Shown one piece after another: positions 1 to 10,879 of a DNA stretch of 30,856 bases. Below the pieces are notes generated by a model that saw only the letters and a program-made list of their open reading frames with translations, made no database searches and was not told the origin of the DNA. The stretch covers positions 1 through 30,856 of the IMG/VR virus record IMGVR_UViG_3300020479_000002; one strand, 5' to 3'. This DNA is from a virus. The stretch's first letter is position 1. Each line of letters begins with the position of its first letter. The position numbers were made by a program, and so were the translations under genes.

Positions 1-48
1 CGATTTGTAATCGGTAGGTCACGGGTTCGATTCCTGTTGCCGGCACCA
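1..48 (+). tRNA. tRNA-Thr (anticodon TGT), 3' part
   Basis: The window starts inside a tRNA gene. Visible parts are the anticodon loop TTTGTAA closed by CGA/TCG, a T-arm ACGGG-TTCGATT-CCTGT, the acceptor 3' strand TGCCGGC, the discriminator A and an encoded CCA ending at 48. The central triplet TGT reads threonine ACA codons. The 5' half lies outside the window. This is a host gene serving as the phage integration site, because an integrase gene ends 15 bases further on. Confidence 0.9.
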
Positions 49-8327: not shown

Positions 8328-8343
8328 TGTAAGCAACCTTACA
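8328..8343. promoter_or_regulatory. left operator site 1 (CI/Cro-type palindrome)
   Basis: TGTAAGCAACCTTACA, a 16-bp near-perfect inverted repeat with half-site TGTAAG. The same half-sites flank four unconserved bases between the repressor and cro genes at 10814. It lies 43 bases upstream of the first left-operon gene, overlapping the -10 region of the candidate leftward promoter. Confidence 0.75.
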
Positions 8344-8364
8344 ACATCGAGGGCCGACATGCAA
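8336..8364 (-). promoter_or_regulatory. candidate leftward early promoter (PL)
   Basis: On the minus strand TTGCAT and TAAGGT are separated by 17 bases upstream of the left operon. The -10 match is weak (first two bases and last base of the consensus), so the call rests mainly on position between and over the two operator sites. Repressor bound there would block it. The leader to the first ATG would be about 45 bases. Confidence 0.35.
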
Positions 8365-8375
8365 GCATGCTTACA
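8360..8375. promoter_or_regulatory. left operator site 2
   Basis: TGCAAGCATGCTTACA, 16 bp, one mismatch from a perfect palindrome and differing by few bases from the site at 10862. It starts 32 bases from left operator 1, about three helical turns, suggesting binding on the same DNA face. It overlaps the -35 box of the candidate leftward promoter. Confidence 0.75.
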
Positions 8376-8513: not shown

Positions 8514-8717
8514 GTGAAGCGGAAAGCTGCGATTTCTTTGACGCTGCGCGGAGCAGGAACGGTCTTGTGCCTAGAACCAGAACGGGCGCACCATAGGCGC
8601 TATCGAGTTTACCGCGAGCCATCGTCCATCGAGAGCGCGTTAGCTTCCGATTGGAAAAACGTGGGCGAGTCCTTGCGTGTAGCTATGGAAAAGTATCAAG
8701 AAGCTCATGCCGGGTGA
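8514..8717 (+). CDS. small phage protein, unknown function
   Basis: 67 aa from GTG 8514, preceded by AGGAGGG at ideal spacing. The N-terminal part is basic and beta-like, and the C-terminal part (SALASDWKNVGESLRVAMEK) is an amphipathic helix resembling the 'D-W-x-x-V-G-x-D-L-R-x-A-M' end of small proteins in other lambdoid prophages. It runs rightward, away from the left operators and towards the repressor operon, and overlaps the DUF2335-type gene by eleven bases. The pair may be a separately expressed cassette. Confidence 0.55.
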   Translation: MKRKAAISLTLRGAGTVLCLEPERAHHRRYRVYREPSSIESALASDWKNVGESLRVAMEKYQEAHAG

Positions 8718-9168
8718 GGACAACTCTAGGGGTTCCCCTTCGGCTCCAAAACCTTCTCCAGTTGGCCCCTTCCCTCCGGGCGGCGCGCCGTTTGCCATCT
8801 TGCAACAGAGTCACGCGGGACCGCTGCCTCCTGCTGAACAGTTCATCAGATACCCACCCGCAGCCCAGACCGTCATTTTGCAGATGGCTCAAGAAGAACA
8901 GCAACGAAGGAATAATCGCCTGGACAAAGGCCAGAATGCAGAGATTCGAGACATGGAATCTGAGAGATCCCAAAAGGCCACGGGGCAACTTTACGGTCTG
9001 ATCATAGCGCTGGCTGGCCTGGTCTGAGCCACAGTGCTTGGGCTGGGCGGTTACGAGGTAGCTTCTTCGGTGATTGGGGGCGCTGACTTGGTAGCGCTCG
9101 TCGCTGTATTTGTCACGGGGCGCGCCATGCCATTGCGAAAAGGCGACGAGGAAGTCTCTCAGAAATAA
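8707..9168 (+). pseudogene. DUF2335-type membrane protein interrupted by in-frame TGA
   Basis: The N-terminal part matches the DUF2335 layout: PLPPAEQFIRYPPAAQTVIL, a charged helix (MAQEEQQRRNNRLDKGQNAE), then the first hydrophobic segment GQLYGLIIALAGLV. A TGA at 9025-9027 stops it there at 106 aa. The same frame continues with a typical family ending (ATVLGLGGYEVASSVIGG, then LVALVAVFVTG) to a TAA at 9166. The intact protein would be about 152 codons with two membrane segments. The stop cuts precisely the membrane hairpin, so the truncated product is probably inactive unless UGA is read through. DUF2335 proteins are of unknown function and frequent near prophage immunity regions. Confidence 0.7.
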
Positions 9169-9187: not shown

Positions 9188-9210
9188 AAAAAACCGGCGC
9201 GAGGCCGGTT
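9188..9210 (-). terminator. intrinsic terminator of the repressor operon
   Basis: AACCGGC and GCCGGTT pair around a five-base loop, and on the minus strand the hairpin is followed by six T residues. It lies 20 bases past the stop of the coiled-coil membrane gene and closes the leftward lysogenic transcript. On the plus strand the hairpin lacks a T tract. Confidence 0.8.
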
Positions 9211-9230: not shown

Positions 9231-9755
9231 TTAGTGCTTGGGCACCGTGTTCAGGATCGTAAAGATACTGCCAAGGGCTCCAAGCGCTCCCGCAATGGCT
9301 ACCGCCAGAGTCACTTGTACCCAAGACTTGGAGGCGAGATGTGGTAGCTGGCTTTCCACGGCAACCAGCCTTTTGTCAATGTCTGTCAACTTGTCGGCAA
9401 TCTGGTCAACCTTCGTTTCAATCCTGGCGATGGCAGCGTTCTGCTGGGCCATCTGCCGATTGAAGTTGTCGTTTTGCTGCTCAATCAGCTTGGTCAAGCC
9501 TTCGATGTCCATTTCGGTCAACCCTTCGGAGAAAAGCATCAAATCTGATGGCGTATATCTTGAGAGAATATCCTCAAGGAGGGTCTGCGCATCCCACCCG
9601 TAAGATACTAACTGCGAGCCTTGGGGTGTGTCTACACTGCTGAAGGCGCTCTGAATCTTGACATCAGCCTCCGTCGAGATGCCATATTGCCTTAACAGCG
9701 ATGGGAGAGCCGCCGGCAAGGGCTTGGGCTCATTCGGTTTTTGTTGTGTTCTCAT
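9231..9755 (-). CDS. coiled-coil, C-terminal membrane-anchored protein in repressor operon
   Basis: 174 aa. Residues 1-80 are soluble with no recognised fold. Residues about 85-140 form a long coiled coil (IEQQNDNFNRQMAQQNAAIA, ETKVDQIADKLTDIDKRL), and residues about 146-169 are a hydrophobic segment (VTLAVAIAGALGALGSIFTI) near the C-terminus. The protein would be a tail-anchored inner membrane protein with its bulk in the cytoplasm. It overlaps the upstream gene by 26 bases and is the last gene before the terminator, so it should be made in the lysogen with the repressor. Superinfection exclusion or phage defence is an inference from this context only. Confidence 0.7.
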   Translation of the reverse strand: MRTQQKPNEPKPLPAALPSLLRQYGISTEADVKIQSAFSSVDTPQGSQLVSYGWDAQTLLEDILSRYTPSDLMLFSEGLTEMDIEGLTKLIEQQNDNFNRQMAQQNAAIARIETKVDQIADKLTDIDKRLVAVESQLPHLASKSWVQVTLAVAIAGALGALGSIFTILNTVPKH

Positions 9756-10047
9756 TTTGCTTTTGCGCCTCGCGCAGCGCGTTCATCTGAGCGTTCAAAG
9801 CCGCCAACTGGCCCTGAATAGCTGCTTGCACTTGTTGCACAAAGTTCGCCGCGGTGGGCAAAGACATGACAATACCAGTCTCTCCGACAATGACGTTTCC
9901 GCTCTCTGTCGGCAGTATGCGTCCCAACTCCGCAAAGATCTCGCCTCCAGAGGCATAGATCTTGAACGCATTGGCGTAATAAAACCGCTCGGGGGGCGTC
10001 GACTTCATCTGCTGAGTGGGCGGCTTCTTCTGGTCTGGATCGGTCAT
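9730..10047 (-). CDS. DUF3467-like small protein in repressor operon
   Basis: 105 aa with an AGGAGA ribosome binding site. The middle part (FYYANAFKIYASGGEIFAEL, then a strand pair ending IVMSLPTAANFVQQVQAAIQ) resembles the short beta-plus-helix DUF3467 proteins, whose function is unknown; the match is by eye and tentative. The C-terminus is a Gln/Asn-rich helix. It lies 16 bases after the repressor gene and overlaps the next gene by 26 bases, so all three share a transcript. Confidence 0.6.
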   Translation of the reverse strand: MTDPDQKKPPTQQMKSTPPERFYYANAFKIYASGGEIFAELGRILPTESGNVIVGETGIVMSLPTAANFVQQVQAAIQGQLAALNAQMNALREAQKQNENTTKTE

Positions 10048-10063
10048 GCGCGTCTCCTGGGTG

Positions 10064-10792
10064 TTACTTGATAGGCTTGATCAGCATGTTGGTGCTCTCC
10101 ACTACGCGGCCCAGAACATCGACGTGCTCAAGGTCTTGCGCTGGGACCACGACATCCGGCTCCGAGGGGTTGAACGATCTCAAGATCAGACCGCCGTCGT
10201 AGCGCCTGAACAGGAACTTGACCGAAATCTGGTCCCCATACCGCAAAAGGTAGGTGCCCCCATCGTTGACTTGGGTGTAGCCCATTTCAACGGTGATCCA
10301 GCTTCCATCGCTGATGAACGGATCCATGCTCGTCCCGCGCACACGGTAGCGGACCAGCTTTTCTGGCTTGAGCCCGTAGCGTTGAATCCAGTCCAGGGAG
10401 TAGCGGAAGCGCCGTTCTTCCTGCACCTGTTCGGTGTGGATGCGATTGCCCGCGCCCACGCGGACGTTCACGGCAGGAATCTCGACTTCACCGTCGGCCA
10501 GCGGATCTTCGGCATGGTATAGCCCTATCGGAACCGGGCCGGATAGCGCCAAGGGCTCGACGACGCGGGCGGTGGCCGCTACGCGCCGCGTTTTTCCCTC
10601 GATCAGCCAATCTGGATCCACGCCCATCACCTTGGCAGCGCGGAGCAAATTGGTTGCAGAAGGGCTTTTGGTTGTTCCGGATATCCACTGACTAACGGCT
10701 TGGGGACGTATACGTATGGCCCTGGCTAGCTCGGAGGCGGTCATGCCACTTTCTTTCAGGGCGTGCTCTAGCCTTTCGGCAATGGTCTGCAT
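10064..10792 (-). CDS. cI: CI-like prophage repressor (HTH + S24 peptidase)
   Basis: 242 aa from ATG 10792 with GAGG upstream; the longer frame from 10870 covers the operators and is rejected. Residues about 8-62 are an HTH_3/XRE domain (GMTASELARAIRIRPQAVSQ). The C-terminal half is a LexA-like S24 peptidase with catalytic Ser155 in RGTSMDPFI and Lys192 in ISVKFLFRR. An Ala114-Gly115 pair in NVRVGAGNR is a candidate self-cleavage site, so induction through RecA is likely. It faces cro across three operator-like sites and probably maintains lysogeny by binding both these and the left pair. Confidence 0.92.
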   Translation of the reverse strand: MQTIAERLEHALKESGMTASELARAIRIRPQAVSQWISGTTKSPSATNLLRAAKVMGVDPDWLIEGKTRRVAATARVVEPLALSGPVPIGLYHAEDPLADGEVEIPAVNVRVGAGNRIHTEQVQEERRFRYSLDWIQRYGLKPEKLVRYRVRGTSMDPFISDGSWITVEMGYTQVNDGGTYLLRYGDQISVKFLFRRYDGGLILRSFNPSEPDVVVPAQDLEHVDVLGRVVESTNMLIKPIK

Positions 10793-10813
10793 GGTGTCCT
10801 CGGCGCGATGCGA

Positions 10814-10829
10814 TGTAAGAAAACTTACA
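10814..10829. promoter_or_regulatory. right operator site nearest the repressor gene
   Basis: TGTAAGAAAACTTACA, half-sites perfectly inverted around four bases. It lies 21 bases upstream of the repressor start and could serve autoregulation, as OR3 does in lambda. The half-sites are identical to left operator 1. Confidence 0.75.
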
Positions 10830-10838
10830 GGCAATTCG

Positions 10839-10854
10839 CTAAAGCATGCTTGAT
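10839..10854. promoter_or_regulatory. degenerate middle operator
   Basis: The central ten bases AAGCATGCTT match the core of the sites at 8360 and 10862, but the outer three bases on each side do not. It is centred between its two neighbours (starts 25 and 23 bases apart), as expected of a weaker OR2-like site. It overlaps the -35 box of the cro promoter. Confidence 0.5.
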
Positions 10855-10879
10855 TTTGGCTTGTAAACATGCTTACAAT
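10850..10879 (+). promoter_or_regulatory. rightward early promoter (PR), probably leaderless
   Basis: TTGATT and TACAAT are separated by 18 bases; each matches the sigma70 consensus at four to five of six positions. The -10 box ends seven bases before the cro ATG at 10886, so transcription should begin at or next to the start codon. No ribosome binding site is visible between them, consistent with a leaderless message. Confidence 0.6.
10862..10877. promoter_or_regulatory. right operator site over the cro promoter
   Basis: TGTAAACATGCTTACA, 16-bp inverted repeat with one mismatch. It covers most of the -10 box of the rightward promoter and ends eight bases before the cro ATG, so repressor bound here should shut off cro and the right operon. 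Confidence 0.75.

What the first reader, a model, noticed from the sequence alone, without database searches (positions are those of the whole stretch)
9231..10047. Two unknown genes co-transcribed with the repressor: candidate exclusion/defence pair
A DUF3467-like small protein and a tail-anchored coiled-coil membrane protein lie directly behind the repressor gene, overlap each other, and end at a strong terminator. They should be expressed in the lysogen with the repressor. This is the location of lambda rex and of many prophage-encoded anti-phage systems, and neither protein matches a defence family I know.
Basis: inference. Interest (0 to 1): 0.62.

Follow-up and report, generated by a model that had tools for sequence, protein, structure and literature searches.

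The report
Prophage gene pair in rex position
Directly behind its repressor, where phage lambda carries its anti-phage rex genes, this unknown prophage carries two other genes: a small protein distantly like an uncharacterised bacterial family, and a membrane-anchored coiled-coil protein with no known relatives; they are plausible but unproven helpers of the lysogen against other phages.

Summary
Two minus-strand genes (105 aa, 9730-10047; 174 aa, 9231-9755) follow the CI-like repressor after 16 nt, overlap by 26 nt and end at an intrinsic terminator (9188-9210). Both have coding-type codon usage. I add a stronger positional argument: four near-perfect copies of one operator (TGTAAG-N4-CTTACA; 0 in 100 shuffles) lie at 8328-8375 and 10814-10877, so the pair sits between OL-like and OR-like sites behind cI, the lambda rexAB slot. 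'DUF3467-like' is supported only indirectly: Pfam misses the protein, but its single relative found (a gene in a type VI secretion cluster, E 1.5e-6) matches DUF3467 at E 0.0011. DUF3467 genes also lie behind rpoBC in a Bacteroidota-type contig and behind RTX proteins, so homology gives no clear function. The 174-aa protein is an orphan: helical head, strong coiled coil, one C-terminal membrane helix. No Rex or PADLOC family fits; unlike RexB it has one membrane segment, not four. Best reading: lysogen-expressed two-part exclusion pair working like Rex, not homologous to it; about 45%. Rivals: Hex-like lysogeny control, toxin-antitoxin, unrelated cargo. Interesting candidate, no functional evidence.

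The parts
10064..10795 (-). CI-like repressor (HTH + S24 peptidase), first gene of the unit; Ala-Gly, Ser and Lys of the self-cleaving type
   Evidence: PF00717 E 1e-15, PF01381 E 8.8e-13; phrog_4 transcriptional repressor E 1e-43; A-G/S/K positions
10054..10058 (-). ribosome-binding site AGGAG of the 105-aa gene
   Evidence: sequence
9730..10047 (-). gene of a 105-aa soluble DUF3467-like protein with a Q/A-rich C-terminal helix (P0001)
   Evidence: codon score; relative in L035 E 1.5e-6, which matches PF11950 at E 0.0011
9231..9755 (-). gene of a 174-aa orphan tail-anchored coiled-coil protein: head ~14-81, coil 84-139, membrane helix ~146-168 (P0002)
   Evidence: no relative
9188..9210 (-). 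intrinsic terminator closing the repressor-pair unit
   Evidence: stem-loop followed by T run; fold of 76 nt -22.1 kcal/mol, z -2.26
10814..10829 (.). OR-like operator TGTAAGAAAACTTACA
10862..10877 (.). OR-like operator TGTAAACATGCTTACA, overlapping the cro-side promoter-like site 10850-10879(+)
8328..8343 (.). OL-like operator TGTAAGCAACCTTACA
8360..8375 (.). OL-like operator TGCAAGCATGCTTACA, at the start of the leftward early operon

Best explanation
The pair is a lysogen-expressed two-component exclusion module that works like lambda RexAB but is not homologous to it. It is transcribed with the repressor from the repressor's own promoter (inferred). The 105-aa DUF3467-like protein is the soluble sensor or adaptor, and the 174-aa protein is the effector: an oligomer held together by its coiled coil and anchored in the inner membrane by one glycine-rich C-terminal helix. 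On infection by another phage the soluble partner would release or trigger the membrane oligomer, which would disturb the membrane or block entry or replication, aborting the infection. Shown here: gene order, overlap, terminator, operators, coding nature, protein architecture. Inferred: co-transcription, partnership of the two proteins, oligomerisation, membrane effect, exclusion.
For: Position: the pair lies behind cI and inside the interval bounded by two pairs of near-identical operators (0 in 100 shuffles), the slot of lambda rexAB. Only 16 nt separate it from the repressor, and one terminator closes the unit. Order soluble then membrane protein, with overlap, as in characterised pairs: RexABpp of a P. 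putida prophage lies downstream of a CI-like repressor and acts by membrane damage (PMC12894663); [quoted passage not shown] Butters gp30/gp31 are similar (PMC7542560). Lower G+C of the pair (about 0.53-0.54 against 0.60 for the window) fits recently acquired cargo.
Against: No defence family matches. Known membrane partners of this kind (RexB, RexBpp, Sbash gp31, Butters gp31) have four membrane segments; this one has one. No related pair was found anywhere, so conserved association of the two genes cannot be shown. The other neighbourhoods of DUF3467-type genes (secretion clusters, rpoBC) do not suggest defence.
Confidence: 0.45

Rival explanations
1. Lysogeny-control module. One or both proteins tune repressor stability, RecA-stimulated cleavage or transcription in the lysogen, as 434 Hex does, rather than excluding other phages.
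For: 434 Hex is translated from the repressor transcript and blocks RecA-stimulated repressor cleavage (PMC3564112). The repressor here has the Ala-Gly/Ser/Lys layout of self-cleaving S24 repressors. A DUF3467 gene lies directly behind rpoB-rpoC in a Bacteroidota-type contig, which hints at a transcription link for that family.
Against: Gives no role to a membrane-anchored coiled-coil partner.
Confidence: 0.15
2. Toxin-antitoxin-like stabilisation module: the upstream small protein restrains a membrane-active downstream protein.
For: Overlapping two-gene order, small soluble protein first, glycine-rich single membrane helix second.
Against: No toxin-antitoxin family matches in Pfam, NCBIfam or PADLOC; the unit already has its regulator (the repressor).
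Confidence: 0.1
3. Lysogenic cargo with an unrelated role at the cell envelope or in host physiology, or without selected function.
For: Lower G+C than the phage; a second lysogenic-cargo-like gene (phrog_3996 'moron' membrane protein, E 1.9e-7) is next to it; DUF3467-type genes occur beside secretion systems.
Against: Coding frames are intact and well formed with RBS, overlap and terminator; the position is the classical exclusion slot.
Confidence: 0.3

Closest known systems
lambda RexA/RexB and RexABpp of Pseudomonas putida (PMC12894663)
   Same: two-gene soluble + membrane pair downstream of the CI-like repressor, inside the OL-OR interval (for lambda, from general knowledge)
   Different: no sequence match to RexA or RexB families; 105 aa instead of a larger DNA-binding RexA; one C-terminal membrane helix with a long coiled coil instead of four membrane segments
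Sbash gp30/gp31, CarolAnn gp44/gp43 and Butters gp30/gp31
   Same: orphan-type prophage pair, soluble + membrane, lysogenically expressed
   Different: unrelated in sequence as far as family searches show; four-pass membrane partner; Gram-positive hosts; here expression is inferred only
Pfam DUF3467 (PF11950)
   Same: size, and YAN and I-V/M-M-S/P motifs that align in register; bridge relative matches the profile nearly full length at E 0.0011
   Different: below any threshold itself; carries an extra Q/A-rich C-terminal helix; phage repressor neighbourhood not seen in the other members examined
434 Hex
   Same: translated from the repressor transcript in a lysogen
   Different: Hex is a single gene overlapping the repressor; here a separate pair with a membrane protein
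XhlA-like and other coiled-coil + membrane-helix phage proteins (PF10779, phrog_1103, phrog_1193)
   Same: coiled coil followed by one C-terminal membrane helix
   Different: matches cover only the coil and helix (E 0.0004-0.1), as any such sequence would; not evidence of descent

Membership tests
RexAB exclusion systems | located behind the CI repressor in the immunity region | tested here: met
   16 nt behind the repressor, between operator pairs
RexAB exclusion systems | soluble partner related to RexA | tested here: not met
   no RexA-type family among Pfam or PHROG matches at E <= 1
RexAB exclusion systems | membrane partner with four transmembrane segments | tested here: not met
   one hydrophobic segment, residues ~146-168
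RexAB exclusion systems | aborts growth of superinfecting phages through membrane damage | not testable with these tools
   needs expression and phage challenge
DUF3467 (PF11950) | score above the Pfam gathering cut-off (25 bits) | tested here: not met
   no match; the bridge relative scores 19.4 bits
DUF3467 (PF11950) | related through an intermediate sequence | tested here: met
   P0001 to L035:8157-8486 E 1.5e-6 per genome in 369 genomes, 31 bits against at most 8 for 2000 shuffles; that protein to PF11950 E 0.0011
434 Hex-type lysogeny factors | inhibits RecA-stimulated repressor cleavage | not testable with these tools
   only the repressor's self-cleavage layout was checked
PADLOC-listed defence systems | full-length match to a system component | tested here: not met
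   only coiled-coil stretches (LmuB, JetC, E >= 0.0008) and HTH matches of the repressor
Toxin-antitoxin modules | downstream protein toxic alone, neutralised by upstream protein | not testable with these tools
   no family match

The most novel reading that the evidence does not exclude
A new class of prophage exclusion system in which a DUF3467-type protein, from a family of unknown function found beside RNA polymerase genes and secretion clusters, senses infection (for example a change in host transcription) and triggers a single-span, coiled-coil membrane oligomer.
Probability: 0.07. Interest if true: 0.8.

Novelty: new variant of a known kind. Interest (0 to 1): 0.42.

Why it matters
Genes in the rex slot of temperate phages are a productive source of new anti-phage systems, and pairs with no relatives are missed by homology-based defence searches. 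If confirmed it would give a function to a DUF3467-type protein and a Rex-like system with a different membrane effector. If not, it is still a well-delimited lysogenic cargo pair.

Tried and rejected
Direct relatives: tblastn of each protein in phages and plasmids, pattern scans of IMG/VR and of bacterial genomes (14, 15, 22), HMM-type searches of 369 and 246 genomes (54, 64, 114, 119). Hits for the 174-aa protein are coiled-coil or out-of-context noise. The IMG/VR hit L041 for the 105-aa protein is the N-terminus of what looks like a phage sliding clamp; at 35 bits after scanning the whole collection I treat it as chance. Two of three genome hits (L033, L034) lie inside unrelated reading frames. 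Structures: single-sequence AF2 models are weak (pLDDT 68.6 and 59.5) and Foldseek found nothing significant; sequence searches of solved structures gave nothing meaningful. Host: the tRNA-Thr half at the window start had no exact match in 274 genomes, so the host remains unknown. Downstream genes of seven phage repressors among the closest (~30-35% identity) are unrelated to the pair by inspection.

Full report
What is there. The window is a 30.9-kb IMG/VR virus record that begins inside a tRNA 3' half (anticodon TGT by eye) next to an integrase (66-1088), followed by leftward recombination genes, an immunity region, and rightward replication and head genes. It looks like the left and middle part of a lambdoid prophage. 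No near DNA relative exists in the phage collection.

The two genes are real ORFs at the stated coordinates. The first begins 16 nt after the repressor stop with a good ribosome-binding site; the second overlaps the first by 26 nt; a stem-loop with a T run closes the unit at 9188-9210. Codon usage scores are in the range of the weaker known genes of this phage and above every wrong frame tested, while the opposing ORFs score negative. A 174-codon open run by chance has probability about 0.003 per start at this composition.

Immunity-region anatomy. Searching TGTAAG-N4-CTTACA with at most one mismatch gives exactly four sites, two between the repressor start (10795) and the cro-like start (10886), and two just in front of the leftward operon near 8360; 100 shuffles gave none. 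The consensus was taken from the first pair of sites, so the independent part of the test is the second pair near 8360. These are the expected OR-like and OL-like repressor sites (inference from symmetry, repetition and position). The repressor, the pair and a convergent stretch with small membrane-protein ORFs are all that lies between them. In lambda the same interval holds cI, rexA and rexB (general knowledge). The repressor carries Ala-Gly, Ser and Lys in the spacing of self-cleaving S24 repressors, so the prophage is probably SOS-inducible.

The 105-aa protein. No family library recognises it and the DUF3467 profile does not find it even at E 10. A search of 369 genomes found one convincing relative, a 110-aa protein of the same length and layout (E 1.5e-6 for its genome; 31 bits against at most 8 for 2000 shuffled copies). 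Without the Q-rich tail the score falls to 21.5 bits, so the claim is moderate, not overwhelming. That relative matches Pfam DUF3467 at E 0.0011 over nearly the full profile, its only Pfam match, and bona fide DUF3467 members align with P0001 in register. The relative sits in a type VI secretion cluster between a PAAR-like gene and TssB, with an oppositely oriented regulator gene before TssB. Other DUF3467 genes seen here follow RTX-type proteins, and one lies between rpoC and rpsL of what is evidently a bacterial (Bacteroidota-type) contig filed as a phage (gene names read from the translations by eye). One paper in the library mentions DUF3467, as a function-unknown protein. So the family name tells us little about function.

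The 174-aa protein. No relative was found in phages, plasmids, IMG/VR patterns, GTDB patterns, or 369 and 246 genomes by HMM-type search; all hits are coiled-coil or chance matches. Architecture: helical head, coiled coil 84-139 with 81% hydrophobic a/d positions, mostly isoleucine at one core position and Leu/Ile/Val at the other, which favours trimers or tetramers over dimers (inference from known core preferences), then one hydrophobic helix with Gly/Ala repeats and a short tail. The models are too weak for fold comparison.

Mechanism. The best reading is a Rex-like, two-part exclusion module, expressed with the repressor, in which the soluble protein controls a membrane-anchored oligomer. 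Precedents with this genetic layout and a shown phenotype are RexABpp (PMC12894663), CarolAnn/Sbash (PMC6426596) and Butters (PMC7542560). All of those have a four-pass membrane partner, so this pair is not a member of those families; it could only work like them. 434 Hex (PMC3564112) shows that genes on the repressor transcript can instead control lysogeny, which is the main mechanistic rival; unrelated cargo is the main dull rival.

Verdict. Observation confirmed, interpretation partly supported; a good candidate with no functional evidence and no comparative evidence that the two genes belong together beyond their overlap.

Noticed in passing
8707-9168 (+): Convergent small membrane-protein gene (phrog_3996 'moron' membrane protein, E 1.9e-7 for the first part) whose frame is interrupted by a TGA at 9025-9027 inside the membrane region and runs on in the same frame to a TAA at 9166-9168. 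It reminded me of DUF2335, but Pfam gives no match even when read through. Broken gene, two short genes, or sequencing error.
   Followed up: partly
8328-8375 and 10814-10877: Four near-identical 16-bp palindromes TGTAAG-N4-CTTACA, OL-like and OR-like repressor sites; none in 100 shuffles.
   Followed up: yes
1-45 (+): The record starts inside a tRNA (anticodon TGT, Thr) 3' half beside the integrase: probable attachment site.
   Followed up: partly
L035:7055-9857: A DUF3467-like protein encoded between a PAAR-like gene and TssB in a type VI secretion cluster; possible unrecognised small component.
   Followed up: partly
L045, L046, L047: DUF3467 gene directly behind a large protein (RTX/LysM-type in L045) and before a ~600-aa protein in three genomes, a conserved neighbourhood that looks secretion-related.
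   Followed up: no
L056 (MT836236.1): 'Bacteriophage sp.' record that carries rpoB-rpoC-DUF3467-rpsL-rpsG-fusA-ribosomal proteins, so evidently a bacterial contig filed as a phage.
   Followed up: yes
8514-8717 (+): 67-aa ORF with GTG start and a possible RBS, just upstream of and overlapping the phrog_3996-like gene; weak codon signal.
   Followed up: no
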